The notes beneath the pieces were generated by a model. It worked only from the letters and a program-made list of their open reading frames with translations, was not told where the DNA came from and did not search any database. Below are positions 19,083-37,960 of a stretch of DNA of 64,000 bases, piece by piece; position 1 is the stretch's first letter, and every line of letters begins with the position of its first letter. Source of the DNA: Nocardioides sp. S-1144 (GTDB lineage Bacteria > Actinomycetota > Actinomycetes > Propionibacteriales > Nocardioidaceae); the NCBI RefSeq assembly GCF_005954645.2, contig NZ_CP040695.2, positions 496,001 to 560,000 of the forward strand, given 5' to 3'. The position numbers and the translations under genes are program-made.

Positions 19083-19235
19083 GGTTGGTGTCCCTTCGTC
19101 GTGATGTGCGGTCCCTGGCTTCGTTACCACCATGCTCCGCGGGGTATGCCTGGGTCACGGGTCGACCGGGGGGTAGAAGGTGTCAGGACACAAGTCACCC
19201 CCGGGCGGCACGGGTCACACCAGCCGGTCCGGGGC

Positions 19236-19249
19236 GACCCCAAGGGGTC
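19236..19249. promoter_or_regulatory. Palindrome upstream of the TrmB/LuxR-like regulator
   Basis: GACCCCAAGGGGTC is a perfect 14-bp palindrome 46 bp before the regulator start. A TACAGT -10-like hexamer follows at about 19262-19267, so the palindrome overlaps the expected -35 region and could be an operator, for example for autoregulation. Upstream at 19123-19147 GTTAC and GGGTAT are 14 bases apart, like a SigB/SigF-type promoter; both are tentative. Confidence 0.4.
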
Positions 19250-19294
19250 GTCGACGACTTGTACAGTGCGCTCAACTCGGGTGGAGGAGAAGAG

Positions 19295-20523: not shown

Positions 20524-22533
20524 ATGAACCCCGACCACCTGCCGGCCCCCCACCCGACGTTCCGGGTGCTCGGACCCGTGAGCGTGTGGGACGGGGAGAG
20601 CTACCAGCCGCTACCGGCGTCGAAGCCGGTGAGCATGCTCGCCACCCTGCTCACCTCGCCCAACGAGGTCACCTCGAACGAGTTCCTGTTGCGGGCCGTG
20701 TGGGGCGACGAGGCCGACGTCGACGCCCGCTCGGCCCTGCGCACCTGCACCACCCGGCTGCGCAAGCTGCTCGTGCGCCACAACCTGGGCGACGACCTCA
20801 TCCAGACCGTGTCCGGCGGCTACCGGCTGCGGGCCGGCGTCGAAGAGCTCGACCTCCTCCTCTTCCGCGAGCACGTCGTCGGCTCGACCCGCCTCGAGGG
20901 CGTCGACCCGCAGGTGCGCGCCCTCCGCGGCGCGCTCGACCTCTGGCAGGGCTCGCTGCTGTGCAACGTCGGCTCCGACGTCCTGCACCGCGGCGTGGTC
21001 CCGCTGCTGGAGGAGGAGCGGCTGCAGGTGCTCGAGCGCATCGTCGACCTGCTCGTCCGCGACGGCCGCGACCAGGAGGCGCTGGCCGAGCTGCAGCTGC
21101 TCACCCGCAGCCACGAGGGCCACGAGCGCTTCGCCCTCCAGCTCGTCGGGGTGCTCTACCGCGCCGGTCGCCGCGAGGACGCCCTGGCCGAGTGCACCCG
21201 GATGAAGCAGTACCTCTCCGACGAGCTCGGGCTCGACCCGACGCCCGAGCTGACCGCGGCCGAGATGGCGATCCTCACCGGCCAGCCGATGGTCCCGGGC
21301 GCCACCGCGCCGCCCGCCCCGACGGCGACCTCGTTGTCGGTCGCGGCGCCCGCCGTCGACGACACCACCGGCCCGGCCGCGGCCGGCCCGGTCGCCTCGG
21401 GCGTGGGCGACGCCGGCGGCACCGGCGGCACCGTCCACCTCCTGCGCCCGGCCGCGGTCGTCGAGGAGCAGCCGCCCGCCCCGGCGCCCACCCTGCCCAC
21501 GTCCCGGTCGCTGCTCGGGAGCTCCGGCTTCGTCGGCCGCGAGGACGAGCTCGACCGGCTGGTGAACCAGCTGACCGGGCGCGACGGCGTCCGCTCGCTG
21601 TGCCTGCTCGTCGGCTCGCCCGGCGTCGGCAAGACCTCGCTCGCCCTGCACGCCGCGGCCCGCGTCGCCGAGCACGTGGCCGGGCACGGCGCCGGTGGCT
21701 CGGTGCAGGCCATGGTCCGGATGCGCGACCACGACGACCGGCCCCGCGACCGCGAGGACGTGGTGGCCGACCTCGCCGCCCAGCTCGGCCCCGGCGCCCA
21801 CGACACGTCGACGTCGCCCGGGCTGCTCCTCCTCGACGACGCCGTGCGCGAGCAGGACGTCGCCGCCATCGCCGACGCCTACCCGCACCGCTCGGTGCTG
21901 ATCACCACCGGGGCGCCGATGCTGCGGCTGGTGCGCACCCACGGGGCGCTGGTCCACCGCGTCGAGGAGCTGCAGATGGCCGACGCCCTGGCGCTGCTCG
22001 GCCGGCTGCTCGGCCCCGCCGGCGTCGCGGAGGACATGCTGGCCGCCTACGACATCGTCACCCACTGCTGGCGCAACCCGCTCGCGCTGCGCGTCTTCGC
22101 GGCGACCCTCCAGACCCGGCCGGCCTGGGGCCTGTCCGCGGCGGCGCAGTGGCTGCGGGAGGACCCGGTGGCCCGGCTCTCCGGCGGCGCGGGAGACCTG
22201 TCGCTCGCGGCCTACTTCGACCTGGCCATGCTGCGCCTGGAGCCCCCGCTGCCCGACGTCGTGACCCGTCTGTCCGCGCTCGACGACGACGGGTTCTCGC
22301 TGCGCGAGGCCGGGGACGCCCTCGACGGCGACCGGTTCGGGCCGCCCCACCAGCACCTCGACGACCTCGTCAACCGCGGCTGGCTCGACGAGCTCGCCCC
22401 GGGGACGTTCCGGGTCGACCCGCTCGTGCGGGCCTTCGCCCTCCGGAGCCCGGCCCCGGCGCGCGGCCCGAGCGCCGTCCCCGTCCTCCGCCCCTGTCCC
22501 GCCCTCGATCCGCCCCAGGAAGGTGCCCGATGA
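20524..22533 (+). CDS. SARP-family regulator with NTPase domain, RiPP cluster
   Basis: A 669-residue activator of the Streptomyces antibiotic regulatory protein type. The OmpR-like winged helix is at about 12-100 (FRVLGPVSVWDGE ... TCTTRLRKLL, SGGYRLR), the bacterial transcriptional activation domain at about 105-250, then an Ala/Pro linker and an NB-ARC-like ATPase with Walker A VGSPGVGKTS (about 363-372) and Walker B LLLLDDAV. Its stop overlaps the next ATG by 4 bp, so it is the first gene of the biosynthetic operon and probably drives its own transcript. The 110-bp leader 20414-20523 holds a GCCCCCG/CGGGGGT dyad that may be its control site. Confidence 0.88.
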   Translation: MNPDHLPAPHPTFRVLGPVSVWDGESYQPLPASKPVSMLATLLTSPNEVTSNEFLLRAVWGDEADVDARSALRTCTTRLRKLLVRHNLGDDLIQTVSGGYRLRAGVEELDLLLFREHVVGSTRLEGVDPQVRALRGALDLWQGSLLCNVGSDVLHRGVVPLLEEERLQVLERIVDLLVRDGRDQEALAELQLLTRSHEGHERFALQLVGVLYRAGRREDALAECTRMKQYLSDELGLDPTPELTAAEMAILTGQPMVPGATAPPAPTATSLSVAAPAVDDTTGPAAAGPVASGVGDAGGTGGTVHLLRPAAVVEEQPPAPAPTLPTSRSLLGSSGFVGREDELDRLVNQLTGRDGVRSLCLLVGSPGVGKTSLALHAAARVAEHVAGHGAGGSVQAMVRMRDHDDRPRDREDVVADLAAQLGPGAHDTSTSPGLLLLDDAVREQDVAAIADAYPHRSVLITTGAPMLRLVRTHGALVHRVEELQMADALALLGRLLGPAGVAEDMLAAYDIVTHCWRNPLALRVFAATLQTRPAWGLSAAAQWLREDPVARLSGGAGDLSLAAYFDLAMLRLEPPLPDVVTRLSALDDDGFSLREAGDALDGDRFGPPHQHLDDLVNRGWLDELAPGTFRVDPLVRAFALRSPAPARGPSAVPVLRPCPALDPPQEGAR

Positions 22534-24593
22534 CCACGTTCGACCAGATCGCCCCCACCCGCCCCCGACTCCAGCGCGACGTCCTCTTCACCGAGACCCC
22601 GCAGGGGGTGCTCTTCCACAACTCCAAGGGCGGCTTCCACCTCAACTCCGGGAGCGCCTACCGCTTCGCCTCGCTCGTGGTCCCGCACCTCGACGGTCGC
22701 GCCAGCGTCGCCGAGCTCGGCGGCGGGCTCGGCGAGGCCCAGCGCTCGATGATGGCGACCCTGGTCTCCTCGCTCCTCGAGCGCGGCTTCGCCCGCGACG
22801 TCGCCGCCACCGGCGGCGACCTCGAGCTCGACGACGCCGCGGTCACCGAGCGCTTCGGCGCCCAGCTCAACTACATCGACCACTACGTCGACGACGCCTC
22901 GCGCCGCTTCGAGCGCTTCCGCTCGGCCCGCGTGGCCGTGCTCGGCACCGGTGACGTCGCCACCTGGTGCGTCCGGGCCCTGGTCCGCAACGGCGCGAGC
23001 ACGCTGGTGGCGGACGTCGCCGGCGACCCCGAGGTGGGGGCGACCGTCGCCGAGCTCGCCGCCGCCGGCGTCACCACCGTCCTGCAGCCGCTCGACGCCG
23101 GCACGGGGCCGCGCGGCTGGGCCGACCTGGGCGACGTCGACGTCGTCGTGGTCGCCGGGACCGGCGCGGTCGCGCAGGCCCACCGCCTCGAGGCCGAGGC
23201 CGGGGCGGCGCCGTCCGGCGTCGTCGTGCTGCCGGCCTGGGTCATCGGCCGTCGCTCGGTGATCGGCCCGATCATCGAGCCCGGCAGCCAGACCACCTGG
23301 GCCGGCGCCGTCCGCGCCCTCGGGCGCGGCCGCCAGGCCGACGAGGCGGCGGTCTGGGAGCAGGTCGCGCAGCCCGCCCTCGGCTCGCCCGTCGGTCCGG
23401 AGGGCCCGATGGCCGCGATGATCGGCAACCACCTCGCCTACGAGGTCTTCCGGGCCGTCACCGGCTGCCTGCCCGCCGAGACCCGCGGCGGCGTCGTCAT
23501 CCAGGACCTCGACTCGCTCGACGTCGTCGCCGAGGGGCTGCTGCCCGACCCGGCGCTGCCGACGACGCGGCCGCTCGACCCCGACGACACCATCGACTGG
23601 ACCCTGCTCGACCCGCCCTACGACGCCCACGCCCACGAGGGCGCGGCCGACGAGGACCCGGTCGCGGTCGCCCTCAACCAGCGCTCCCGGCTCGTGCAGC
23701 AGCACACCGGGCTGGTCCCGGAGTTCACCGACGACGCGTGGACCCAGACCCCGCTCAAGCTGAGCAGCGCCACCCTCTCGACCGGCCGGGACCGCACCGA
23801 GACGCTCGTCGTGGCCGACATCGACCACGTGGCCGCCGCGCGGCTGCGGGTGCTCGACCGGGTCGCCGTGCGGCACGCGGCCACGGCCCGCACCCGGCCG
23901 ACCCGCGGTCGGTCGCTGGCCGACGCGGTCGAGGTGGAGGCGCCCGCGACCGGCGAGCACACCGGCCACGCCGCCGGCGGCACCCTCGGCGCGGCGACCG
24001 TGCGGGCCCTGGCCCGGGCGGTGGCCCACCGGGGCGTCGTCGACGCCCTGCGCGGCGCGCCGGTGCACCGCGTCGACCTCGACGCCTGCCTGACCCAGGA
24101 CGCCGTCCCGGGCACCCGCCGCGGCGCCGAGGTCACCTTCCTGCTGCGCTCGGCCGAGCTGCTCGGCGTCGAGCTCGAGGTGCTCGAGGTCGCCGCGCCC
24201 GCCGGCGCCGCCCGGGTCGCCCTGGTCCGCTCGCCCAGCCACCGCGACGTCCACGCCGTCGCCGCCGCGCTCGACCTGCCCACCGCCGTCCGCGACGCCG
24301 TGGTGGACGTCGTCGGCACCGTCCAGGCCCGCACCGACGCCGCCGGCACCGCCGCGGAGCCCGCGTCGTGCAGCGTGGTCGAGCCCGTCGTGCCGGCCCT
24401 GGACCCGTGGACCCTCCAGGTGCGCGACGACGCCGGGACCCGGCCGACCGCGCCCACCTGGGAGGAGTCGGTCACCCGGCTGGCGGTCTCCGGGCTGTCA
24501 CCCGTCGCGGTCCGCACGACCACCGCGGCGCTCGCCCCGGCCGGGGTCGAGACCGTCGCGGTCACCCTCGTCGAGGACGGCTCGGCCCGATGA
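22530..24593 (+). CDS. RRE/ocin-ThiF-like leader-binding protein of the RiPP cluster
   Basis: A 687-residue protein that delivers the precursor to the cyclodehydratase. Residues 12-100 look like a PqqD-type RiPP recognition element (VLFTETPQGVLFHNSKGGFH, HLDGRASVAELGGGL). Residues about 130-330 are ThiF/E1-like with a degenerate nucleotide loop (VAVLGTGDVATW). A C-terminal region of about 350 residues is less clear. In azole-forming clusters this F- or C-protein-like partner activates YcaO. It is the only such protein here although two YcaO proteins are present, so it may serve both. ATG 22530 overlaps the SARP stop by 4 bp. Confidence 0.8.
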   Translation: MTTFDQIAPTRPRLQRDVLFTETPQGVLFHNSKGGFHLNSGSAYRFASLVVPHLDGRASVAELGGGLGEAQRSMMATLVSSLLERGFARDVAATGGDLELDDAAVTERFGAQLNYIDHYVDDASRRFERFRSARVAVLGTGDVATWCVRALVRNGASTLVADVAGDPEVGATVAELAAAGVTTVLQPLDAGTGPRGWADLGDVDVVVVAGTGAVAQAHRLEAEAGAAPSGVVVLPAWVIGRRSVIGPIIEPGSQTTWAGAVRALGRGRQADEAAVWEQVAQPALGSPVGPEGPMAAMIGNHLAYEVFRAVTGCLPAETRGGVVIQDLDSLDVVAEGLLPDPALPTTRPLDPDDTIDWTLLDPPYDAHAHEGAADEDPVAVALNQRSRLVQQHTGLVPEFTDDAWTQTPLKLSSATLSTGRDRTETLVVADIDHVAAARLRVLDRVAVRHAATARTRPTRGRSLADAVEVEAPATGEHTGHAAGGTLGAATVRALARAVAHRGVVDALRGAPVHRVDLDACLTQDAVPGTRRGAEVTFLLRSAELLGVELEVLEVAAPAGAARVALVRSPSHRDVHAVAAALDLPTAVRDAVVDVVGTVQARTDAAGTAAEPASCSVVEPVVPALDPWTLQVRDDAGTRPTAPTWEESVTRLAVSGLSPVAVRTTTAALAPAGVETVAVTLVEDGSAR

Positions 24594-26548
24594 CCATCAC
24601 CCCGGCCCGACCGGGCGTGGCGCCGCCCGACACCCAGCGCCGGGCGCGGCCGCTGCCCGGCCTCGCCGCCGCCGTCGCCGCCGTGGGTGCCGGGGGTCGG
24701 CCGAGGACCGCGTGGCTCGGTCTCGACGACGCCTTCCGGGTCGCCCCGGACCTCGACGACACCGCGGGCCCCGACGGCACCGACGGCACCGACGGCACCG
24801 ACGGCCCGCCGGTCCTGGTGCACGACCGCCAGGCGCTGGTCGGCCCGGTCGCCCCCGTGCCCGGCGAGGCCTGCCCCACCTGCCTGGCCCGCCGCTGGCA
24901 GGCGGTGCGCCCCGAGACGCTGCGCACCGCGCTCGAGCTCGGCCACGGCGCCCGCCACGGTGTCGACGAGCCGTGGGCGAACCCCTTCGCGGACCTCACC
25001 GTGGCCTCGCTCTCGGCCCTGGTCGGGCCGCGGCCCGGCACACTGCACGCCGAGGTGCACGACGTCGACCTGGAGCGGCTGCACGTCACCCGGCACGCCG
25101 TCGTCGCCGACCCCGAGTGCCAGTCCTGCGGCGCGCTGCCCGAGGACGCCCCGTGGCAGCCGCACCTCGCGGCCTCGCCGAAGCCGGCCCCCGACAGCTA
25201 CCGCGGCCGCTCGATCTTCGACTACGACCTCGACCTCGACGCCTACGCCAACCCGGTGTGCGGCGCCCTGGGTCCCGGCATCGTCCGCGACGTCACCTCG
25301 ACGACGACGTCGGCCACGGTCGGCTGCCTGATGGTCCGGTCCGCCGAGTACCTGCGCGAGACGTTCTGGGGCGGGCACGACGACCGGTTCGACGTCAGCG
25401 CCCGGATCGGCGTCCTGGAAGGCCTCGAGCGGGCCGCCGGGATGCGCCCGCGCGGCGTCACGACCGCGGTCACGGCCAGCTACCACGAGGTCGCCGCGGA
25501 CGCCGGCGGCGCCGGGGTGCTCGACCCGCGCACGTGCGGGCTCTACGACGACGCCTTCCACGCCGAGCACCCCTGGATCCACCCCTTCGACCCCGACCGC
25601 CCGATCCGCTGGGTCTGGGCGCACTCGCTGCGCGACGACCGCCCGGTCCTGGTGCCCGAGGTGCAGGCCTACTACCACATCCCCGGCCAGGAGAACCGGT
25701 TCGTGCAGGAAAGCTCCAGCGGCTGCGCGACGGGGGCCAGCGAGGTCGAGGCGACCTGGTTCGGGCTCCTCGAGGTCCTCGAGCGCGACGCCTTCCTGCT
25801 CGGCTGGTACGGCGGACGCCCGCTCCCGGAGATCGACGTCGCGAGCAGCGCCAACCTCTCCACCCGGGCCACCGTCGAGCGGCTCGCGCTGCACGGCTAC
25901 CGCGCCCGCTTCTTCGACGCCCGGGTCACCTTCCCGGTGCCCGTCGTCATCGGCGTCGCCGAGCGCGTCGACGGCGGCATGGGCCGCCTGTGCTTCGGCG
26001 CCGGCGCCTCGCTCGACCCGGAGGTCGCCATCGAGGGCGCGCTCTGCGAGATCGCCACCGACGCCCCCAACAGCCGGCTGCGCTGCACCAACCACGAGCC
26101 GCGCCTGCGGGCCATGGTCGACGACTTCGCCCACGTCCAGTCGCTGCACGACCACCCGCTGCTGCACGGCATCCCGGAGATGCGGGGCTACTCCGACTTC
26201 CTGCTCGCCGAGCAGCCGACGAGCACCGTGCACCAGCGCTTCGAGGTCGACCGGCCGCGCCCGCGCCCCTCGCTCGACCTGCGGACGGACCTCGACACGG
26301 TGCTGGGCCTGGTCACCGACGCCGGCTTCGACGTGCTGGTGGTCGACCAGACGATGCCCGAGCAGCGGGCCCTCGGCCTGCACACGGTCAGCGTGCTGGT
26401 GCCCGGCCTGCTGCCGCTCGACTTCGGCTGGTCGCGCCAGCGGGCGCGCTCGCAGCCCCGGATGCTCACCGCGCGCCGCGAGGCCGGCCTCGACGACCGC
26501 GACCTCACGGCCGAGGAGCTCACCCCGGCCCCGCACCCCCTGCCCTGA
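24590..26548 (+). CDS. YcaO-domain azoline cyclodehydratase 1
   Basis: ATP-dependent enzyme, 652 residues, that turns Cys, Ser or Thr of the precursor into thiazolines or oxazolines. An N-terminal region carries two CxxC pairs (about residues 94/97 and 177/180) that probably bind structural zinc. The YcaO core follows with ATP/Mg elements VLEGLERAAG and GCATGASEVEATWFGLLEVLERDAF. The C-terminus is PHPLP, the proline-rich end needed by azole-type YcaO enzymes. A DGT repeat (three copies of GACGGCACC) forms an acidic linker near residue 65. ATG 24590 overlaps the previous stop by 4 bp. Confidence 0.9.
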   Translation: MTITPARPGVAPPDTQRRARPLPGLAAAVAAVGAGGRPRTAWLGLDDAFRVAPDLDDTAGPDGTDGTDGTDGPPVLVHDRQALVGPVAPVPGEACPTCLARRWQAVRPETLRTALELGHGARHGVDEPWANPFADLTVASLSALVGPRPGTLHAEVHDVDLERLHVTRHAVVADPECQSCGALPEDAPWQPHLAASPKPAPDSYRGRSIFDYDLDLDAYANPVCGALGPGIVRDVTSTTTSATVGCLMVRSAEYLRETFWGGHDDRFDVSARIGVLEGLERAAGMRPRGVTTAVTASYHEVAADAGGAGVLDPRTCGLYDDAFHAEHPWIHPFDPDRPIRWVWAHSLRDDRPVLVPEVQAYYHIPGQENRFVQESSSGCATGASEVEATWFGLLEVLERDAFLLGWYGGRPLPEIDVASSANLSTRATVERLALHGYRARFFDARVTFPVPVVIGVAERVDGGMGRLCFGAGASLDPEVAIEGALCEIATDAPNSRLRCTNHEPRLRAMVDDFAHVQSLHDHPLLHGIPEMRGYSDFLLAEQPTSTVHQRFEVDRPRPRPSLDLRTDLDTVLGLVTDAGFDVLVVDQTMPEQRALGLHTVSVLVPGLLPLDFGWSRQRARSQPRMLTARREAGLDDRDLTAEELTPAPHPLP

Positions 26549-26584
26549 CCCCCGCACCACCTGCCGACACCCCAGGAGAACGCG

Positions 26585-28201
26585 ATGACGACCTTCGCGC
26601 ACGACTACACCGAGCAGATCCTGCACCGCGGACGGGTCTACATGGATCCCGTCGACTTCGTCCCGAACTGGAGCGACAAGCCGCGCAAGCAGAAGTTCTA
26701 CCCCGACGCCGACCGGCTCCCGCTGGGCACAGCGCCCTACCCGGGCGACGCGAGCGTCGACGCCGGCCTGCACGGCGCGGAGACCCACCGCCTCGGTCAC
26801 GACCTCGACACCCTCGGCGCGCTGCTCCAGGACTCCTACGGGCTCTCGGGTCGCCGGCTCGGCATCCAGGCCAACACCGACCTCGGCGGGCTGCCCTGGT
26901 ACGTCGACGCCAACTGGTCGCGCGGCACGGCCTCGGGCGGCGGTCTCTACCCCGTCGCCGTCTACCTGGTGGCCGGTCCCTCCTCGGACCTGGTGCCCGG
27001 CGTCTACCACTACTCACCCTCGCACCACGCCCTGCAGCGGCTGCTCGTCGGCGACGTCAGCGGCGACGTCCGGGCCGCGCTGGGCGGGCGCTGCGACGAC
27101 ACCGACACCTTTCTCGTGCTCGGCATCAAGTACTGGCAGAACGCGTTCAAGTACAACAGCTTCAGCTTCCACGCCGTGACCATGGACGTCGGCACCGTGC
27201 TGGGCACCTGGCGGCTGTGGAGCCGGGCCCGCGGGGCGGCCGTCGAGCCGCACCTGTGGTTCGACGAGCCCGCGCTGGCCCACCTGCTCGGCGTCGAGCC
27301 GAGCCTCGAGGGCATCCACGCCGTGGTGCCGCTCGGCGGTCCCGGGGCCGTCACCACCGCCGCCCCCACCGGTGCCCGGGTCGCGCTGCGCGACCACGAG
27401 AAGTCGCGGGTCAGCTTCGGGTTCGAGGCGGTCGAGACGATGCAGGCCGAGACCCAGGCCGGGTGCCTCGACGTGCCGACGCCGGCGTCGCTGGACGCGG
27501 CGCGGCCCACCTTCCCCGCCCCCGACGACGGGTCGCTGGTCGCGCTGCCGCCGGCGCGGCCGATGCCGGTCGACGTCCGCGCGGCCCTGCGCCGGCGCCG
27601 CAGCAGCTTCGGTCGCTTCCAGGGCGACCCGATGCCGGCCGAGGAGCTCGGCGCGCTGCTGGCCGCCGGCCAGGCCGGCGCGGTCGCCAGCGAGGCGACG
27701 CCGTCAGGCGCGGACGCCCGGGGGATCACCACGCTCTACGCCTTCGTCAACCACGTCGAGGGCGTCGCCCCCGGCGCCTACCGCTACCACCCGGCCGAGC
27801 ACGCGCTCGAGCCGGTCGTGGCCGGCGGGCAGGGGCGCTTCCTCCAGGACAACTACTTCCTCTCGAACTACAACATGGAGCAGGCCGGCGCCGTGATCGT
27901 GCCGACCGTGCGCACCCACGCCGTGCTCGACGCCGTCGGCTCCCGGGGCTACCGCCTCGTCAACGCCACCATCGGCGCGGTCTCGCAGGCCACCTACACC
28001 GCGGCCGCTGCGCTCGACACCGGCTGCGGCGTGGCCCTCGGCTTCGACAACATCTCCTTCATCGAGCTCCTGGGGCTGGAGGAGTCGGGCGAGAAGCCAC
28101 TGCTCGTGATGGCCGTGGGCCGCGAGCGGGGCTCCGAGGGCGACTTCGGGTCGTCGCTCGTCCCGGCCGAGGTCCCGGCGCACGTCGAGGCGGGTGCGTG
28201 A
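26585..28201 (+). CDS. Tandem-domain SagB-type azoline dehydrogenase
   Basis: FMN-dependent oxidase, 538 residues, about double a single nitroreductase fold, that would oxidise azolines to azoles. Domain 1 (about 60-270) keeps the SagB FMN-site motif as GTASGGGLYPVAVY and a KYWQNAFKYN segment in the place of the catalytic Lys-Tyr region. Domain 2 (about 330-525) has SEATPSGADARGITTLYAF and a divergent NYFLSNYNMEQAGAV. Both halves may bind FMN; the first looks more canonical. AGGAGA precedes ATG 26585. The TGA and the next ATG share a base. Confidence 0.87.
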   Translation: MTTFAHDYTEQILHRGRVYMDPVDFVPNWSDKPRKQKFYPDADRLPLGTAPYPGDASVDAGLHGAETHRLGHDLDTLGALLQDSYGLSGRRLGIQANTDLGGLPWYVDANWSRGTASGGGLYPVAVYLVAGPSSDLVPGVYHYSPSHHALQRLLVGDVSGDVRAALGGRCDDTDTFLVLGIKYWQNAFKYNSFSFHAVTMDVGTVLGTWRLWSRARGAAVEPHLWFDEPALAHLLGVEPSLEGIHAVVPLGGPGAVTTAAPTGARVALRDHEKSRVSFGFEAVETMQAETQAGCLDVPTPASLDAARPTFPAPDDGSLVALPPARPMPVDVRAALRRRRSSFGRFQGDPMPAEELGALLAAGQAGAVASEATPSGADARGITTLYAFVNHVEGVAPGAYRYHPAEHALEPVVAGGQGRFLQDNYFLSNYNMEQAGAVIVPTVRTHAVLDAVGSRGYRLVNATIGAVSQATYTAAAALDTGCGVALGFDNISFIELLGLEESGEKPLLVMAVGRERGSEGDFGSSLVPAEVPAHVEAGA

Positions 28202-31041: not shown

Positions 31042-32099
31042 CCACCCTCACCGCCGAGCCGACCCGGGACACCGACGACCAGCCGGGGGAGTGGCTGGCC
31101 ATGCACGTCTACTACGCCGCCAACCCGCAGCCGCTGCTCACCCGGTGCATCCGCGACGTCTTCGCCGAGCTCACCGAGCGCGACCTGCTCGACGGCTACT
31201 TCTTCATCAATTACTGGCTCGAGGGGCCGCACGTGCGGATGCGGCTCAAGCCGCGGCGCGCCGCGGACACCGAGCTGGTCAAGGAGCTCGCCGAGAAGCG
31301 CGTGCGGGAGTACCTGGCCCGCCGCCCGGCCCTCTACGACGTCGACACCGGCTTCCTGGGCGACCTGTACCAGCAGCTGTTCTCGATGGAGTTCAGCGAG
31401 GACGAGAAGCAGGAGTACCTGGCCGAGGACGGGACGATGAACCTGCGTCCCAACAACGACCTCGCCTACCTGCCCTACGAGCCGGAGAACGGCAAGTACG
31501 GCGGCCCGGCCGGCGTCGAGCTCGCCGAGTGGCACTTCCAGCACTCCTCGGACCTGACGATCGAGATGCTGCGCACCAACAACCTGCACCTGCGCTCGGT
31601 CCTGCTGGGCACCTCCGCCCAGCTGATGATGGTGATGGCGGCGTCCTTCCTCGACGACCGCGACGAGCTGGCCACCTTCCTGCGGCGCTACCACGACTTC
31701 TGGCAGTCGCACTTCGCCGGCACCGACTTCATCGCCGACGAGGAGTACGCCACCGGTTTCGCCGACAACGTCGAGCGGATGGGCGGGCTGTTCGACCGGG
31801 TGCGCTCGGCGGTGCGGCGCGACGCCCTCGACGAGCTGCCGCCGCACCTGGCCGGCTGGGCCGCCCACTGCCGCGAGCTGCGCGGCCGGGTCGCCGAGCT
31901 GGCCCGCGCGGGCCGGCTGACCTTCGGGTCCTGGGACCGCACCCGCACGACGGTCGTCACCGAGCCCGGCGAGGCGCTGGTCATCCTGCTCTCGCCGTAC
32001 CTGCACATGACCAACAACCGCCTGCACGTGACGATTCGCGACGAGGCCTACCTCGCCTACCTGCTGGGTCGGGTGCTCACCGACGGCGCGCCGACATGA
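31038..32099 (+). CDS. SpaB_C/thiopeptide-type glutamate elimination protein
   Basis: A 353-residue stand-alone homologue of the C-terminal LanB domain. The start region reads WLAMHVYYAANPQPLLTRCI and then GYFFINYWLEGPHVRMRLKP, the typical YWEGGPHxRxR-like motif of this family. Together with the upstream protein it would eliminate glutamate to leave dehydroamino acids. Thiopeptide clusters carry a second paralogue that performs the [4+2] ring closure; only one is present here. Either this one has a single elimination role or it combines roles. ATG 31038 overlaps the previous stop by 4 bp. Confidence 0.86.
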   Translation: MTTLTAEPTRDTDDQPGEWLAMHVYYAANPQPLLTRCIRDVFAELTERDLLDGYFFINYWLEGPHVRMRLKPRRAADTELVKELAEKRVREYLARRPALYDVDTGFLGDLYQQLFSMEFSEDEKQEYLAEDGTMNLRPNNDLAYLPYEPENGKYGGPAGVELAEWHFQHSSDLTIEMLRTNNLHLRSVLLGTSAQLMMVMAASFLDDRDELATFLRRYHDFWQSHFAGTDFIADEEYATGFADNVERMGGLFDRVRSAVRRDALDELPPHLAGWAAHCRELRGRVAELARAGRLTFGSWDRTRTTVVTEPGEALVILLSPYLHMTNNRLHVTIRDEAYLAYLLGRVLTDGAPT

Positions 32100-33382
32100 C
32101 CAGCCTGGCCGACCGTCGCGCCGACGTCGACGGCGCCGCCCCGGCGTTCCTCGACGCCCGGCCGGTGCTCCGCGCCGACCTCCAGGTCAGCGACCGGGTG
32201 TGGCACGGACCGCGCGCGGTGCGGCTGGTGCGCGACCCGGTGACCGACCGGACCCACGAGATCGGCCTGCGCGAGCACTTCCTGCTGACCCGGCTCGACG
32301 GGACCAGCACCCTGGCCCGGATCGGCCGCGACTACGAGAGCGAGCTCGGCCAGACGATCGACGCGACCGGCTGGCAGCAGCTGCTCGGGCTCGCCCACGC
32401 CCGGGGGATGCTCGTCGTCCCCGGCGCGGAGCCGGTCCCCGCGGCCGTCGCCGCCGGCCCGGCCGGGTCGGGACGCCGGTGGAGCGGGTCGGTGCTCAAG
32501 GGCGAGGTCGCCGTCGTCCGCGACGGCCAGGCGCTCACCGCTCGGCTGCTCGGCCTCCTGTCCCCGCTGCGCCACCTGCCCACCGGGCCCTGCGTGCTCG
32601 CGGTCCTGGCCGGCCTGGCCACGATGCTCGGCGTGCTCGCCGCGGACCTGCCGGCCCTGCTCGACGGGCTCGGGGACGCCGTCGCCCGGCCCGGCGTGGT
32701 CGTCGCCACGGTCGCCGTGCTCTGGGTGAGCGGCGCGCTCCACGAGCTCGGGCACGGCCTCGTGGCCCGGGCCCACGGCGGCAGCGTCCGCGAGCTCGGC
32801 ATCAGCTGGTGCCTGCCGCTGTTGATCCCGTTCTGCCGCGTCGAGGACTACCGCTACCTGCCGGGACGACGGGCCCGCCTGGCCACGGCCGGCGTCGGCT
32901 GCGTGGTCAACCTCGCGGTCCTCGTGCCGTTCGCGACCGCCTGGTGGGCCACGTCCCCGGACGCCGCCGTCCGGCCGTTCCTCGCCGCGGTGCTGGTGCT
33001 GGGCACGGTCTTGGGCCTGGTGAACCTGGTGCCGCTCGCCCCGCTGGACGGCTACGTGCTGCTCACCCACGCCACCGGCACCCTCGGCCTGACCGCCGCC
33101 AGCCAGGGGTACGCGACGCTCGCCGTCGGTGCCCGCCTCGGCGGCCGCCGCGCCACCGACCAGCGACTCGCGGTGGCCCGCTACCCGCGTGGCCTGCGCC
33201 GGCTCTACGCCGCCTACGCGCTGGCCTCGCCGCTGATCGTCCTGGCCTGCGCCGCGTTCGCGGTGTGGGTGGCGGCCTCGGTGATCCCCGACGCCGCCGG
33301 TCCCTGGCGGTGGGCCGGCCCGCTCGCCGTCGCCGTCCTCGTCGTGGCCGGCCTGGCCACCACCCAGCGGAGCCGGACGTGA
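32096..33382 (+). CDS. M50-family membrane metalloprotease with RRE-like N-terminus
   Basis: A polytopic membrane protein of 428 residues. The zinc motif HELGH is at about 216-220 inside a helix, and the partner NLVPLAPLDGY (Asp ligand) is at about 311-321. About six further helices follow. The first 115 residues resemble a PqqD/RRE winged helix (LREHFLLTRLDGTSTLARIG), suggesting it holds the leader peptide. It could remove the leader during export or act in self-protection; no other protease is encoded in this operon. ATG 32096 overlaps the previous stop by 4 bp. Confidence 0.8.
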   Translation: MTSLADRRADVDGAAPAFLDARPVLRADLQVSDRVWHGPRAVRLVRDPVTDRTHEIGLREHFLLTRLDGTSTLARIGRDYESELGQTIDATGWQQLLGLAHARGMLVVPGAEPVPAAVAAGPAGSGRRWSGSVLKGEVAVVRDGQALTARLLGLLSPLRHLPTGPCVLAVLAGLATMLGVLAADLPALLDGLGDAVARPGVVVATVAVLWVSGALHELGHGLVARAHGGSVRELGISWCLPLLIPFCRVEDYRYLPGRRARLATAGVGCVVNLAVLVPFATAWWATSPDAAVRPFLAAVLVLGTVLGLVNLVPLAPLDGYVLLTHATGTLGLTAASQGYATLAVGARLGGRRATDQRLAVARYPRGLRRLYAAYALASPLIVLACAAFAVWVAASVIPDAAGPWRWAGPLAVAVLVVAGLATTQRSRT

Positions 33383-33465
33383 GGCCGGCCGCACCCACCC
33401 CCCAGCCGGCCCCCCAGCCCGTCCCCCAGCCCGCCCGACAGTCCGCCCGACAGAAGGAGCCCACG

Positions 33466-34446
33466 ATGAGCACCACCAGCATCGACCGACGAGCGGCCGA
33501 CCCCGCGGCCCCGGCGCAGGACGTCGCGATCCAGGTCCGCGGCGTGCGCAAGTCCTACGGCGCCCGGGAGGTGCTGCGCGGCATCGACCTCGCGGTCCGA
33601 CCCGGCGAGTTCTTCGGCATCCTCGGCCCCAACGGCGCCGGGAAGACCACCCTGGTCGAGATCATCGAGGGTCTGCGCCGCCCCGACGGCGGCGACGTCG
33701 AGGTGCTCGGCGCCTCACCGCACCGGCGCCGCTCCGGCCTGCTGCGCCGCGTCGGCGTGCAGACCCAGAAGGGCGCCTTCTTCACCCGGCTCACCGCCCG
33801 CGAGCACCTGCTCACGATGGCCTCGCTGTACCGGGTCTCGCCGGTCCAGGCCGACCGCACCCTCGCGCTGGTCGGACTGACCGGTCAGGGCGACGTCCGG
33901 GTCGAGAAGCTCTCCGGCGGGCAGAAGCAGCGCCTGGCCATCGCCGGCGCCCTGGTGCACGAGCCGGACGTGATCTTCCTCGACGAGCCGACCGCCGCCC
34001 TCGACCCCCAGGCGCGGCGCGACCTGTGGACGGTGCTGCGCGACCTGCGCGCCCAGGGCCGCACGATCATCTACACCACCCACCACCTCGACGAGGCCGA
34101 GGCGCTGTGCGACCGGGTCGCGATCCTGGTCGCCGGCGAGATCCGGGCCCTCGACACCCCCCACCTGCTCAAGGCGGCGAGCCACGGCCTGGGCCAGGTG
34201 CGCGTGCCGGTCGGCCGGCTCGACGCCGCCCGCGGCGCCGACCTGGTCGGCGTCGTCGGGATCCGCACCGAGGGCGGCGCGCTGGTGCTCGAGACCGAGC
34301 GGCCCAGCGACGTCCTGCTGCAGGTCAGCGAGATCTGCGCCCTCGACGGCGTCGAGACCCGCACCCCTAACCTCGAGGACGTCTACCTCGAGCTCACCGC
34401 AGACCAGCCCGAGCACGCACCCCAGCACGAGGAGGCCGTCCGATGA
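33466..34446 (+). CDS. ABC exporter ATP-binding protein, RiPP cluster
   Basis: A 326-residue ATPase of the drug/antibiotic exporter type. Walker A GPNGAGKT is at about 60-67, the signature is LSGGQKQR, Walker B is VIFLDEPT and the H-loop is YTTHH. The C-terminal 90 residues match the DUF4162-like tail common in ABC-2 exporters. GAAGGAG lies 8 bases before ATG 33466. An in-frame GTG at 33379, overlapping the protease stop, would add a 29-residue Pro/Gln-rich extension, so the start is not certain. It likely energises export of the mature peptide and immunity. Confidence 0.87.
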   Translation: MSTTSIDRRAADPAAPAQDVAIQVRGVRKSYGAREVLRGIDLAVRPGEFFGILGPNGAGKTTLVEIIEGLRRPDGGDVEVLGASPHRRRSGLLRRVGVQTQKGAFFTRLTAREHLLTMASLYRVSPVQADRTLALVGLTGQGDVRVEKLSGGQKQRLAIAGALVHEPDVIFLDEPTAALDPQARRDLWTVLRDLRAQGRTIIYTTHHLDEAEALCDRVAILVAGEIRALDTPHLLKAASHGLGQVRVPVGRLDAARGADLVGVVGIRTEGGALVLETERPSDVLLQVSEICALDGVETRTPNLEDVYLELTADQPEHAPQHEEAVR

Positions 34447-35252
34447 GCACCGCCACCCTGGATCCCGGCACCACGACCGGCACGTCCGGCGAGAGCCCGA
34501 CCCGGGTCTTCCCGACCCTGGTCTCCGCGCACCGTCGCGCGGCCGCCCGCGACGTCACCACGATCTTCTTCACCTTCGCGTTCCCGCTGATCTTCCTGCT
34601 GCTCTTCGGCTCGATCTTCAGCGGCCAGGACGTCGAGCAGTCCGGCAAGAGCTACATCCAGTACATCGCGCCGGGGGTGCTCACCTGGGGCGTCGCCAAC
34701 GCCGCGGTGTTCTCGATCGCCTTCGCGCTCATGCAGTGGCGCGAGAGCGACCTGCTGCGCATCATCCGGATGACGCCGACCCGGGTCGGCACGCTGCTCT
34801 CCTCCAAGCTCGCGATCGCCCTCGTCATCGCCCTGGTGCAGACCGCGCTGTTCGTCGGCGTCGCGATGGTCCCGTTCTTCGGGCTGCGCCCCGCGGGCTC
34901 CTCGTGGGAGGCCCTGCCGCTGCTGGCGCTGGGTGTCGTGACGTTCTTCGCCCTCGGCGCCGTGATCGGGTCGGTGACCAACACCGCCGAGTCGGTGGCC
35001 GCCGTCAGCAACGTCATCATGCTGCCGATGGCCTTCCTGTCGGGCTCGTTCTTCCCGCTCGACATGATGCCGGACTGGCTGCAGAAGGTGGCGCAGGTCT
35101 TCCCGCTGTACTACCTCAACGACGGGGTCGGCCACGCGCTCAACGGCACCGGCTCGACGTCCGACGTGCTGCTCTCGCTGGGCGTGCTGGCCGGCTTCGC
35201 GCTCGTCTTCGCCGCGGTCGCCGTCAAGGTCTTCAGGTGGAGCAATGACTGA
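34443..35252 (+). CDS. ABC-2 type exporter permease, RiPP cluster
   Basis: A 269-residue membrane protein with six predicted helices, partner of the upstream ATPase. The FTFAFPLIFLLLFGSIFSG helix comes early (about 40-58) and the ABC-2 signature region (LPMAFLSGSFFPLDMMPDWL) lies near residues 196-215. It probably exports the finished peptide, which would also protect the producer. ATG 34443 overlaps the ATPase stop by 4 bp, and its own stop overlaps the YcaO-2 start by 8 bp, so all three are translationally coupled. Confidence 0.88.
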   Translation: MSTATLDPGTTTGTSGESPTRVFPTLVSAHRRAAARDVTTIFFTFAFPLIFLLLFGSIFSGQDVEQSGKSYIQYIAPGVLTWGVANAAVFSIAFALMQWRESDLLRIIRMTPTRVGTLLSSKLAIALVIALVQTALFVGVAMVPFFGLRPAGSSWEALPLLALGVVTFFALGAVIGSVTNTAESVAAVSNVIMLPMAFLSGSFFPLDMMPDWLQKVAQVFPLYYLNDGVGHALNGTGSTSDVLLSLGVLAGFALVFAAVAVKVFRWSND

Positions 35253-37182
35253 GCTGCTGGAGCCGACGGCCGCCGGGGTCGCCGGGCTGCCCGTCGACGA
35301 GGTCGTCGCCGCCCTCCGCTCCCGGCTCGTCTCGCACGACGGCGGTCCCGTCGGCGTGGTCGCCCTCGGTGCCCGCGGGGTGCAGGACGACCCCGCGGAC
35401 GCCGTCCGCGCGCAGGCGTCGGTGCACGTCACCGGGGAGGCCGTGCTGGTCGGTCCCTGGGGCGGTGCGGACGGCGCCTGCGGCCAGTGCCTCGGCATCC
35501 GCTGGCAGCGCCTGCGCACCCGGTCCGAGCGCGAGGCGCTCGAGCACGGCAAGGTGCCCGAGCCGCTCGGCAGCTGGCCGGTGCTCACCGACTTCCTCGT
35601 CGCCGCCGTCCAGGCCCAGGTCTGGCTCGCGCAGGCCCGGCAGCCCGAGCCGTCGCCCTGGGGGTCGGGCTGGCAGCGGCCGGCCGACCTGCGCCAGCGC
35701 CAGGTGACCCGCATCGACCTCGAGACGCTGGGCCTGCTGACGGTGCCGGTGCTGCGGGAGCCGACCTGTCCGTCGTGCGGTCCCGACGGCGTCGACGACC
35801 CGCTCGCCGCCGGCGACCTCGCCGAGCAGCCCAAGCCGCGCCCCGACGTCTACCGAACCCGTGGCATCGACGACCTCGACCTGCCCTCGGCGGCCCTGGC
35901 CAACCCGGTCGCCGGGGTGATCGGCACCAAGACGTGGCTCAACCACCTCTCGCCGACCACCGCCCCGGTGGCCGGCGGCGGGTTCGTCCGCGGGTACGCC
36001 GGCCTGGTCGACGTCACGTGGAGCGGCCAGGGCGCGTCGTACGACCGCAGCCGCACCCTGGCCTTCGTCGAGGGTCTCGAGCGCTACGCCGGCACCCACC
36101 GGCGGCACGGCCGCGAGGTCGTGGTGGCGTCCTACGACGACGTCCGCGACCACGCCGTGCACCCGCTGTCGTGCGGCGACTACGACCCGGCGACCTACGC
36201 CGAGGAGTCGCTGCTCGACCCGTTCGACCCCTCCCGCCCGATCCCGTGGGTCTGGGGCCGGTCGCTGACCCACGACCGGGCGGTCCTGGTGCCGTCGCGG
36301 CTGGTCTACTACAGCGCCGGCGTCGCGGCCGACAACTTCGTCTTCGAGTGCTCCAACGGCTGCGCCACCGGCAGCAGCCGCGAGGAGGCGACCCTCTTCG
36401 GGCTGCTCGAGCTGCTCGAGCGCGACGCGTTCCTGCTCGCCTGGTACGGCGGGCTCGACCTGCCGCGGATCGACCTCGACGACCTCGACGACCCGCGGAT
36501 CAGCGCGATGCGCGCCCGTGCCGGGCTGCTCGGCTACGACCTGCACGTGCTCGACAACCGGATCGACATCGACGTCCCGGTGATCACCAGCGTCGCCGTG
36601 CGGCCGGACGGGTCGATGGGCACGCTGTCGCTGGCGGCCGGGGCCAGCCTCGACCCGCGCGAGGCGGTCGAGGCGGCTCTGTCGGAGACCCTGACCTACC
36701 TGCCGCACCTGCCGAACCAGGCGCGCGAGGGGGAGGCCGAGCTGCGCGCGATGATGGCCGACTACGGGCTGGTGCGCCACCTCACCGACCACGCCCGGAT
36801 GTACGGGATGCCCGAGATGGGCGTGCACACCCGGCGCTACGTCGCGCCCCGGTCGAGCACCACGTTCGGCGCGGCCTTCGGCGCCCACCTCGACCGGCCC
36901 GGACGCACCGACCTGCGCGAGGACGTCGCCGACGTCGTCGACCGGATCGCCGCAGCCGGCCACGAGGTGGTGGTGGTCGACCAGACCTCGCCCGAGCAGG
37001 CGGCGGCCGGGCTGCACACCGTCGCCACGCTCGCCCCCGGACTGCTACCGATCGACTTCGGCTGGAACCGGCAGCGCGCCCTGCGCATGCCGCGGCTGCG
37101 CACGGCCCCGGCCCGCGCCGGTCTCGTCGACCACGTCCTGACCGACGAGGAGCTGGTCCGCGTCCCGCACCCCTTCCCCTGA
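35245..37182 (+). CDS. YcaO-domain azoline cyclodehydratase 2
   Basis: A second complete azole-type YcaO protein of 645 residues. It has the same plan as cyclodehydratase 1: two CxxC pairs (about 79/82 and 175/178), the ATP-site segments FVEGLERYAG and GCATGSSREEATLFGLLELLERDAF, and a PHPFP C-terminus. The two are clearly paralogous along their whole length but diverged. Two active copies may split the work, for example Cys versus Ser/Thr or different core positions. There is no TfuA partner, which argues against thioamide formation. It ends the operon just before a terminator. Confidence 0.9.
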   Translation: MTELLEPTAAGVAGLPVDEVVAALRSRLVSHDGGPVGVVALGARGVQDDPADAVRAQASVHVTGEAVLVGPWGGADGACGQCLGIRWQRLRTRSEREALEHGKVPEPLGSWPVLTDFLVAAVQAQVWLAQARQPEPSPWGSGWQRPADLRQRQVTRIDLETLGLLTVPVLREPTCPSCGPDGVDDPLAAGDLAEQPKPRPDVYRTRGIDDLDLPSAALANPVAGVIGTKTWLNHLSPTTAPVAGGGFVRGYAGLVDVTWSGQGASYDRSRTLAFVEGLERYAGTHRRHGREVVVASYDDVRDHAVHPLSCGDYDPATYAEESLLDPFDPSRPIPWVWGRSLTHDRAVLVPSRLVYYSAGVAADNFVFECSNGCATGSSREEATLFGLLELLERDAFLLAWYGGLDLPRIDLDDLDDPRISAMRARAGLLGYDLHVLDNRIDIDVPVITSVAVRPDGSMGTLSLAAGASLDPREAVEAALSETLTYLPHLPNQAREGEAELRAMMADYGLVRHLTDHARMYGMPEMGVHTRRYVAPRSSTTFGAAFGAHLDRPGRTDLREDVADVVDRIAAAGHEVVVVDQTSPEQAAAGLHTVATLAPGLLPIDFGWNRQRALRMPRLRTAPARAGLVDHVLTDEELVRVPHPFP

Positions 37183-37201
37183 CCTTCCGCACCAACCCCG
37201 C

Positions 37202-37229
37202 ACGGCCCCCGGCTCACGCCGGGGGCCGT
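37202..37229 (+). terminator. Terminator of the RiPP biosynthetic operon
   Basis: A 12-bp perfect stem (ACGGCCCCCGGC and its complement) with a 4-base loop lies 19 bp after the stop of YcaO 2, followed by TTCG. It is strong and GC-rich with a poor T-tract, typical of actinobacterial terminators. Confidence 0.85.
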
Positions 37230-37293
37230 TCGCGTGCGCCGGGCGGCGGCGTCGTCCGGTCGGCCGGCCGCCGCCGTCAGACCGCCCCCAGCT

Positions 37294-37563
37294 GTGCAAT
37301 TGCCGCGGATCGCTCAGCTCGGCGCCGCGGAACTGGCCAGGTCGCGGCAATTGCGCGCCAGCGTCACCGCCCCGCCCCCGACGTTGCCCTCACCCGTGCA
37401 ATTGCCGCGGATTGCTCAGGTCGGCGCCGTGGAAGTGGCCAGGTCGCGGCAATTGCGCGCCAGCGCCACGGTCCCGCCCTGACACCGCCCCCAGCCGTGC
37501 AATCGCCGCGGATCGCTCAGCTCGGCGCCGCGGAACTGGCCAGGACGCGGCAATTGCGCGCCA
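37294..37563. repeat. Array of three stem-loop repeats (about 102-bp period)
   Basis: Three units begin at 37294, 37396 and 37497, each about 67-70 bp. Every unit has arms GCAATTGCCGCG and CGCGGCAATTGC around a 35-base centre (with TCAGCTCGGCGCCG). Unit 3 has GCAATCGCCGCG in the left arm, which still pairs by G-U in RNA. The spacers (CACCGCCC-like) are also related. The array fills most of the 469-bp gap between the RiPP operon terminator and the precursor terminator, and no gene is seen in it. It resembles REP/BIME-type extragenic palindromes. Confidence 0.88.
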
Positions 37564-37594
37564 CCGGCCACCACCACGTCGTCGTCAGGGCGCG

Positions 37595-37637
37595 AAAAAG
37601 CCACGAAGGGCCTGTCCCGGAGGACAGGCCCTTCGTG
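37595..37637 (-). terminator. Rho-independent terminator of the precursor gene
   Basis: A perfect 16-bp stem (CACGAAGGGCCTGTCC and complement, 37602-37637) with a CGGA loop is followed on the minus strand by GGCTTTTT. It lies 15 bp after the precursor stop. A textbook T-tract terminator is rare in this window and marks the precursor as its own transcript. Confidence 0.92.
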
Positions 37638-37651
37638 CGCGGAGACTCGGG

Positions 37652-37816
37652 TCAGGCCGAGCAGCTCGTGGTCGAGGTCGTCGACGAGCAGGTGGAGGTC
37701 GAGGAGGAGCTGGTGCAGCCCGCGAGGACCATCTCGGCGTCGTCGGCGTAGTCAGCGATCTCGAAGGTGTCGGCCTCGAGGGCGACGAGCTCACGGTTCA
37801 GGGAGTTGTTGATCAT
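37652..37816 (-). CDS. RiPP precursor peptide, thiazolylpeptide type
   Basis: A 54-residue precursor, short enough to be missed by gene finders. AGGAG lies 7 bases before ATG 37816. The leader (1-33) begins MINNSLNRELVALEADTFEI and continues with an acidic ADYADDAE stretch to VLAG. The core (34-54) is CTSSSSTST, CSSTTSTTS, CSA: 3 Cys, 10 Ser, 7 Thr and a final Ala. Cys are at 34, 43 and 52, exactly nine apart. Such leaders and cores match the thiazolylpeptide-type bacteriocin precursor family as I remember it. It is convergent with the biosynthetic operon. Upstream, TTGTC/GACAA arms around 37857-37871 may be a control site. Substrates for every enzyme of the operon are present in this core. 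Confidence 0.92.
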   Translation of the reverse strand: MINNSLNRELVALEADTFEIADYADDAEMVLAGCTSSSSTSTCSSTTSTTSCSA

Positions 37817-37960
37817 GTCGATTCTCCTTCAGGTGATGTTCCCGGGAGTTCCGGGTTGTCGTTCTGACAAGGAGTACGTTGCCGGGCCGGGCGAGCAGGG
37901 CCGGTGCACCTGCGGGGCACCCCGCGGGCAGCGCGGACGCACGCCGGTGACCGGCCTGTG

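What the first reader, a model, noticed from the sequence alone, without database searches (positions are those of the whole stretch)
20524..37816. A RiPP cluster with azole and dehydroamino-acid enzymes and a convergent 54-residue precursor
Nine overlapping genes encode a SARP regulator, RRE/ThiF-like protein, two YcaO enzymes, tandem SagB dehydrogenase, split LanB, M50 protease and ABC exporter. The precursor at 37652-37816 is short, on the opposite strand and has its own ribosome-binding site and T-tract terminator. Its core is 20 of 21 residues Cys, Ser or Thr. I know of no characterised product with this enzyme set and core. I cannot rule out that related clusters have been listed in genome surveys.
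Basis: partly seen in the sequence, partly recalled or inferred. Interest (0 to 1): 0.93.

Follow-up and report, generated by a model that had tools for sequence, protein, structure and literature searches.

The report
Widespread ring-studded peptide gene cluster
A run of ten genes in a soil actinobacterium faces a tiny gene for a peptide whose predicted tail is 20 of 21 residues cysteine, serine or threonine, and its two ring-forming enzymes and split dehydratase are predicted to turn that tail into a linear peptide full of rings and double bonds; the same set recurs in many Streptomyces with almost the same tail, so it is likely one widespread natural product, whose chemistry no paper I could search describes.

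Summary
The window, from a Nocardioides-genus genome, has a ten-gene operon (20524-37182) and a convergent 54-aa precursor (37652-37816, minus strand) ending in CTSSSSTSTCSSTTSTTSCSA, which passes NCBIfam TIGR03892 and NF033400. It is not rare: a scan confirmed 328 relatives of the LanB-C protein. Of the best 80, 62 have full flanks and 58 of those carry all ten genes; 68 of 70 testable loci have a convergent precursor, none a same-strand one. Of 73 precursors, 72 end TTSTTSC[SCT]A. New here: three YcaO-fold proteins. Two form separate old clades and look active. The third, the predicted leader-binding F protein, ends in a YcaO fold that has lost key catalytic residues in all 66 sequences aligned. 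The single LanB-C protein mostly classes with glutamate-elimination enzymes, and the pyridine-synthase model finds nothing else in the genome, so the product is probably linear, not a thiopeptide; fold similarity points the other way. Closest in logic: goadsporin. The spongiicolazolicin strain carries this cluster too, but another locus there fits that compound's size. No product was found in the papers searched. Verdict: real, widespread, uncharacterised; a new variant of dehydrated linear azole peptides.

The parts
20524..22533 (+). AfsR/SARP-type regulator (Trans_reg_C, BTAD, NB-ARC), 669 aa
   Evidence: Pfam BTAD 4.5e-26, Trans_reg_C 6.6e-10; a SARP homologue in 65 of 80 related loci, some of them cut by contig ends
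22530..24593 (+). F protein, 687 aa: predicted leader-binding RRE (about 10-90), E1/ThiF-like domain (about 100-348), degenerate YcaO fold (about 363-682)
24590..26548 (+). Cyclodehydratase D1 (C-D fusion YcaO), 652 aa
   Evidence: PF02624 4.3e-73; TIGR03604 and TIGR03882 over cut-off; EGLER, EVLER, terminal PHPLP; D1 clade 100/98
26585..28201 (+). Tandem SagB-type azoline dehydrogenase, 538 aa
   Evidence: TIGR03605, 2 stretches, 146.4 bits; Nitroreductase 9e-18; residues conserved in both halves over 71 sequences
28201..31041 (+). LanB N part, predicted glutamyl-tRNA-dependent Ser/Thr glutamylation, 946 aa
   Evidence: PF04738 2.8e-42; PDB match 6ec7/6ec8, 3e-29, the only dehydratase found at E 1 or less
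31038..32099 (+). LanB C part, predicted glutamate elimination, 353 aa
   Evidence: PF14028 2.5e-40; TIGR03891 80.9 bits, over cut-off as in 5 of 5 elimination-type and 0 of 4 cyclase-type controls; motifs GPHVRMR, PENGKYGG, HMTNNR; counter-evidence
32096..33382 (+). M50 intramembrane metalloprotease, predicted leader protease, 428 aa
   Evidence: PF02163 1.5e-10; HELGH at 216; HExxH in 72 of 73 homologues
33466..34446 (+). ABC exporter ATPase, 326 aa
   Evidence: ABC_tran 9.4e-31
34443..35252 (+). ABC-2 exporter permease, 269 aa
   Evidence: ABC2_membrane 6.2e-26
35245..37182 (+). Cyclodehydratase D2 (C-D fusion YcaO), 645 aa
   Evidence: PF02624 8.6e-83; TIGR03604 344.6 bits; EGLER, ELLER, terminal PHPFP; D2 clade 100/99
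37602..37637 (-). Intrinsic terminator of the precursor (16-pair stem, then GCTTTTTCGC)
37652..37816 (-). Precursor peptide, 54 aa, leader with LEADTF (Lx4F) and 21-residue core
   Evidence: TIGR03892 1.8e-12 and NF033400 2.5e-9, both over cut-off
37655..37717 (-). Predicted core CTSSSSTSTCSSTTSTTSCSA
   Evidence: 20 of 21 residues C/S/T; 72 of 73 related precursors end TTSTTSC[SCT]A; the boundary after LAG is inferred
37823..37829 (-). Ribosome-binding site AAGGAGA of the precursor
   Evidence: read

Best explanation
The ten-gene operon at 20524-37182 and the convergent precursor gene at 37652-37816 are predicted to make a linear peptide in which the Cys, Ser and Thr residues of a 21-residue core would be turned into azoles and dehydroamino acids. 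Proposed order. (1) The F protein's RRE binds the leader at LEADTF, an Lx4F motif (motif shown; binding inferred). (2) F, whose own YcaO domain has lost key catalytic residues (shown by alignment), presents the peptide to two ATP-using cyclodehydratases, D1 and D2, which form azolines at different residues (both keep their motifs; activity and the split of sites are inferred). (3) The tandem SagB oxidises azolines to azoles (inferred from family). (4) LanB-N glutamylates remaining Ser/Thr and LanB-C eliminates glutamate to give Dha/Dhb; by analogy with goadsporin this follows azole formation (inferred). (5) The M50 protease removes the leader near LAG and the ABC pair exports the product (inferred). 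(6) No separate pyridine synthase is found, so the product stays linear (inferred). The SARP-type gene would switch on the operon. The near-invariant core suggests one conserved target or signalling role, unlike variable antibiotics (weak inference).
For: Enzyme assignments. Synteny: 58 of 62 full-flank loci hold all ten genes; 68 of 70 testable loci hold a convergent precursor, 0 a same-strand one. Precursor family, and the identical core in 4 of 9 database relatives. Both YcaOs kept: two clades of 17 rows (window plus 16 loci that I chose), each 100% ultrafast bootstrap, in Nocardioidaceae, Streptomycetaceae and Micromonosporaceae; the terminal PHPxP motif is intact in 69 of 70 D1 and 70 of 71 D2. 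F. LanB-C as elimination enzyme. One PF14028 protein in the whole genome and no second pyridine-synthase match. Lx4F is a recognition sequence of actinobacterial thiopeptide RREs (PMC12710340, passages); glutamylation by GodF was not seen without the azoles (PMC5303826, passages).
Confidence: 0.72

Rival explanations
1. It is a true thiopeptide (pyritide) pathway: the single LanB-C protein, or an unrecognised protein, also performs the [4+2] aza-cycloaddition and the product is macrocyclic.
For: Precursor family is named thiazolylpeptide-type bacteriocin. The fold model of LanB-C is nearest to TbtD/PbtD, and its NF045556 score exceeds those of the five elimination-type controls and of two of four cyclase-type ones. 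An F-like protein and split LanB occur in thiopeptide clusters.
Against: TIGR03891 is passed by 5 of 5 elimination-type and 0 of 4 cyclase-type controls, and by the window protein; BLASTP hits the five elimination-type controls at 2e-9 or better, the cyclase-type at best 0.001. The pyridine-synthase model recovers TclM and LclM at 60.6 and 39.5 bits, yet in the genome finds only this protein. No free-standing elimination enzyme is among the PDB matches shown, so the fold ranking does not decide.
Confidence: 0.15
2. It is a plain linear azole peptide of the goadsporin or spongiicolazolicin kind, with the second YcaO redundant.
For: Same enzyme logic: cyclodehydratase, dehydrogenase, split LanB (PMC4603692 and PMC5303826, passages). 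Strain CWH03, from which spongiicolazolicins came (PMC8838263), also carries this cluster (L131).
Against: D1 and D2 are two separately conserved clades with intact motifs. Spongiicolazolicins are 29 and 28 residues long; CWH03 has a third YcaO locus on another contig, about 8 kb from a 54-aa precursor-like frame with a 28-29-residue end holding unmodifiable residues.
Confidence: 0.08
3. The second YcaO does another reaction, such as thioamide or amidine formation.
For: Some YcaO proteins do so (thioamidated thiopeptides in PMC8120280, passages; amidines recalled).
Against: D2 passes TIGR03604 and TIGR03882 and ends in PHPFP as D1 homologues do. No TfuA-like match among the ten genes.
Confidence: 0.05
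4. The cluster is silent or decayed in this strain and makes nothing.
For: Only 4 of 196 Nocardioides genomes carry a TIGR03892 match; a dispersed repeat lies between D2 and the precursor.
Against: All ten frames are open, motifs are intact, and Nocardioides sp. 1609 holds the same cluster at 86-99% protein identity with an identical precursor.
Confidence: 0.05

Closest known systems
Goadsporin (LAP with dehydroalanines)
   Same: Fused cyclodehydratase, flavin dehydrogenase, split LanB, no [4+2] enzyme (PMC4603692 and PMC5303826, passages)
   Different: One cyclodehydratase GodD; 19-residue core with unmodified residues; GNAT acetyltransferase; leader removal ascribed to a peptidase-ABC protein. 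Here: two cyclodehydratases plus an F protein with degenerate YcaO, M50 protease, core of C/S/T plus Ala
TIGR03892 / NF033400 thiazolylpeptide-type bacteriocin precursors
   Same: The window precursor passes both curated cut-offs
   Different: The family name implies a thiopeptide product; no separate pyridine synthase was found here
Coryneazolisins (Cox et al. 2015)
   Same: Two D proteins, LanB-like dehydratases, no [4+2] enzyme, C/S/T-rich core (PMC4603692 section 26)
   Different: There one D protein is discrete and one fused, and the core is interrupted by Ile; here both are fused and there is an F protein
Thiopeptides with an F protein (thiomuracin, thiocillin/micrococcin)
   Same: F protein, fused cyclodehydratase, split LanB (partly recalled), Lx4F leader motif
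   Different: The micrococcin-type plasmid pBac115 has two C-type genes, an elimination-type one and one matching the pyridine-synthase model; here one
Spongiicolazolicins A and B
   Same: Azoles and dehydroamino acids (PMC11583998, passages); the producer strain also carries this cluster
   Different: 29 and 28 residues; a separate YcaO locus in that genome fits them by size
Dehydrazoles (carnazolamide)
   Same: Azoles plus dehydroamino acids
   Different: Dehydration by a DUF4135-cyclase fusion (PMC10676384, first part of the text); here split LanB
Telomestatin
   Same: Core CTTSSSSS made only of Cys, Thr and Ser (PMC5469769, passages)
   Different: Macrocycle of eight azole-type rings; no LanB is named in the passages read

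Membership tests
[quoted passage not shown]
   D1 and D2 over TIGR03604 and TIGR03882 cut-offs; motifs intact
[quoted passage not shown]
   TIGR03605 146.4 bits against cut-off 78.4
[quoted passage not shown]
   needs mass spectrometry or NMR
Thiopeptide (pyritide) | [4+2] pyridine synthase besides the elimination enzyme | tested here: not met
   One PF14028 and one sub-cut-off NF045556 match in the genome, the same protein, which passes TIGR03891 like the elimination-type controls. Caveat: fold and NF045556 score lean the other way, and a divergent cyclase would be missed
Thiopeptide (pyritide) | Precursor of the thiazolylpeptide family | tested here: met
   TIGR03892 and NF033400 over cut-off
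Thiopeptide (pyritide) | F protein (TIGR03693) | tested here: inconclusive
   72.2 bits, E 2.7e-20, but curated cut-off 561.9
Goadsporin type | Split LanB with fused cyclodehydratase and dehydrogenase | tested here: met
Goadsporin type | GNAT N-acetyltransferase in the cluster | tested here: not met
   no acetyltransferase over its cut-off among the ten operon genes; of genes further out only three were scanned
Goadsporin type | Single cyclodehydratase | tested here: not met
   two, in separate clades
Coryneazolisin | One discrete and one fused D protein | tested here: not met
   both D1 and D2 carry TIGR03882 fused to YcaO
Dehydrazole | DUF4135-cyclase fusion dehydratase | tested here: not met
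   no such domain among the ten operon genes
Spongiicolazolicin | 28-29 residue core | tested here: not met
   predicted core is 21 residues; a separate locus in CWH03 fits; the link to that locus is by size only

The most novel reading that the evidence does not exclude
This is an unrecognised class of RiPP: a peptide whose modified part is nothing but Cys, Ser, Thr and one Ala, processed by a three-YcaO assembly in which a dead YcaO carrying the leader-binding domain feeds two live ones with divided labour, ending in an almost fully azole/dehydroamino-acid linear peptide that has stayed nearly the same molecule across actinobacterial families, as a conserved signal or target binder would and not as an arms-race antibiotic.
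Probability: 0.3. Interest if true: 0.8.

Novelty: new variant of a known kind. Interest (0 to 1): 0.56.

Why it matters
It gives a clean natural test of two open questions in RiPP chemistry: how enzymes that compete for the same Ser and Thr divide a core made of almost nothing else, and why a pathway keeps two cyclodehydratases plus a dead one. The near-invariant core in many Streptomyces suggests a common, overlooked metabolite with a conserved role. It also warns that the database label thiazolylpeptide-type bacteriocin covers clusters without a detectable separate pyridine synthase.

Tried and rejected
Spongiicolazolicin: a relative lies in the producer strain CWH03, but that genome has another YcaO locus with a precursor-like frame of fitting length; the assignment is by size only.

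Pyridine synthase: tested by genome search, family models with nine controls, BLASTP and fold. TIGR03891, BLASTP and motifs say elimination; fold and the NF045556 score lean to the cyclase side. Elimination-type and cyclase-type labels of the controls rest on gene order, sequence motifs and recalled knowledge of TclL/TclM, so the motif argument is partly circular.

Core selection measured as synonymous against non-synonymous change was dropped: its input was pre-filtered by a core pattern (64 of 73 precursors plus the window's), and Ser AGC/TCN switches count as two amino-acid changes, so pN is inflated. Replaced by the count over all 73 (66 DNA strings, 14 peptide ends); even there the precursor finder required a C/S/T-rich end and a leader motif, so the 73 of 73 Lx4F count is not independent.

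The 102-bp tandem repeat between D2 and the precursor was considered as a regulatory part: 23 matches lie over the genome, three of them this array, so it is a dispersed repeat, not part of the system.

Papers: no paper was read whole; sections, passages or the first part of the text were seen. Schwalen et al. 2018 on thiopeptide mining is not held, so it may list these clusters. Searches seen as listings: 13, 22, 23, 35, 54, 55, 60, 73, 78, 87; the search for the core letters found 0 papers.

Full report
What is there. The window lies in a 4.43-Mb genome of one contig whose genus-mate G142 is Nocardioides sp. 1609 (contig of the same length, 362,984 bases, with the same match), so the genus is Nocardioides by inference. 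Ten genes run on the plus strand: SARP 20524-22533, F 22530-24593, D1 24590-26548, tandem SagB 26585-28201, LanB-N 28201-31041, LanB-C 31038-32099, M50 32096-33382, ABC 33466-34446 and 34443-35252, D2 35245-37182. Seven junctions overlap and two are gaps. The precursor is convergent at 37652-37816, 469 bases from the D2 stop, with an AAGGAGA ribosome site and a terminator hairpin on its own strand. Its predicted 21-residue core has 20 C/S/T residues, the only such end among 746 frames.

How common it is. A protein search with the precursor gave nine relatives. Four of the nine have the identical 21-residue core: one unnamed, and records named Yimella, Streptomyces and Actinokineospora; the other five differ. 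A scan of genome contigs with a LanB-C alignment matched 504 stretches, confirmed 328 and kept the best 80: mostly Streptomyces, with Micromonospora, Catellatospora, Plantactinospora, Actinacidiphila, Streptantibioticus and Nocardioides among the rest. Of the 80, 62 have full flanks and 58 of those hold all ten genes; the other four are L097, L119 and L131 without a SARP hit and L110 without permease and D2 hits (L110 has a run of 100 N). Of 70 loci with D2 and more than 1 kb beyond it, 68 have a precursor, always convergent; L096 and L135 have none found. These 80 are the nearest relatives, so the figures do not describe all 328. By TIGR03892, 4 of 196 Nocardioides (three of them with this operon: the window's genome, G142 and G309), 61 of 295 Streptomyces and 7 of 396 phylum-wide genomes match, 4 of the 7 over the cut-off; these counts mix subfamilies.

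The core. In 73 precursors from 68 loci, 72 end TTSTTSC[SCT]A; the last 63 bases come in 66 versions but the last 21 residues in 14. Variation is mostly among C, S and T at the first four core places and the last but one. The most divergent cores are two of N. insulae and three of Catellatospora.

The dehydratase. LanB-N matches 6ec7/6ec8 in the PDB (titled lantibiotic dehydratase domain protein, TbtB being recalled). LanB-C is the key question. It is the only PF14028 protein in the genome. It shares GPHxRxR, PExxKY and HxxxNR features with the protein that follows LanB-N in the micrococcin-type plasmid pBac115 and in a Lactobacillus thiopeptide plasmid, not with the next gene, the cyclase type. 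TIGR03891 is passed by 5 of 5 elimination-type and 0 of 4 cyclase-type controls and by the window protein; BLASTP agrees. Against this, its fold model (pLDDT 87.4) is nearest to TbtD/PbtD, its NF045556 score of 82.6 is higher than in all five elimination-type controls and in two of four cyclase-type ones, and the small tree does not part the two types cleanly. I still read it as an elimination enzyme, because a split LanB-N needs one and this is the only candidate.

Mechanism. Leader binding through Lx4F (LEADTF here; a motif of actinobacterial thiopeptide RREs, PMC12710340), azoline formation by D1 and D2, oxidation by SagB, then glutamylation and elimination, cleavage by M50 and export. That glutamylation needs prior azoles is reported for GodF (PMC5303826) and TbtB (as cited in PMC10676384). 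Site choice, number of rings and activity are unknown.

Known or new. Closest in logic are goadsporin and the uncharacterised coryneazolisins (PMC4603692). The strain that makes spongiicolazolicins (29 and 28 residues, PMC8838263) carries this cluster, but another YcaO locus there lies about 8 kb from a precursor-like frame with a fitting 28-29-residue end. No paper found by the listed searches reports a product. Filed as a new variant of dehydrated linear azole peptides; not filed as a thiopeptide, because a separate pyridine synthase was tested and not met.

Noticed in passing
window 37281-37572: 2.9 copies of a 102-bp tandem repeat between D2 and the precursor; mostly its first 58 bases or so recur over the genome (23 matches in all), a dispersed REP-like element.
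   Followed up: partly
L044-L048 (unnamed genus of the same order, genomes of 7.6-8.9 Mb), L049, and L080 (Streptomyces sp. NBC_00316 plasmid): Sister clusters with a single YcaO; L044-L049 hold three or four precursor genes in a row with longer cores made mostly of C, S and T with some Gly or Ala; L080 holds at least one.
   Followed up: partly
L050 and L051: Other thiopeptide-like loci in the genus and family: L050 has both an elimination-type and a cyclase-type LanB-C protein; in L051 only an elimination-type one was seen.
   Followed up: partly
L169 19635 (Streptomyces pacificus CWH03, handle G785): A 54-aa precursor-like frame about 8 kb from a third YcaO gene, with a 28-29-residue end NCAGSASTAGSFSCPGGTIGSAGSASST, the size of spongiicolazolicin.
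   Followed up: partly
L109 17116-17635 (Nocardioides insulae): Two precursors side by side, one with a shortened core SACSTSSTSSTTSSTCA.
   Followed up: no
window 19085-20413 (+): Regulator-like ORF just upstream of the operon with weak TrmB and LuxR-type HTH matches, all below cut-off.
   Followed up: no
precursor cores: Ser codons of the core switch between AGC and TCN across species although single-base routes pass through Thr or Cys, both of which the pathway might also accept.
   Followed up: no
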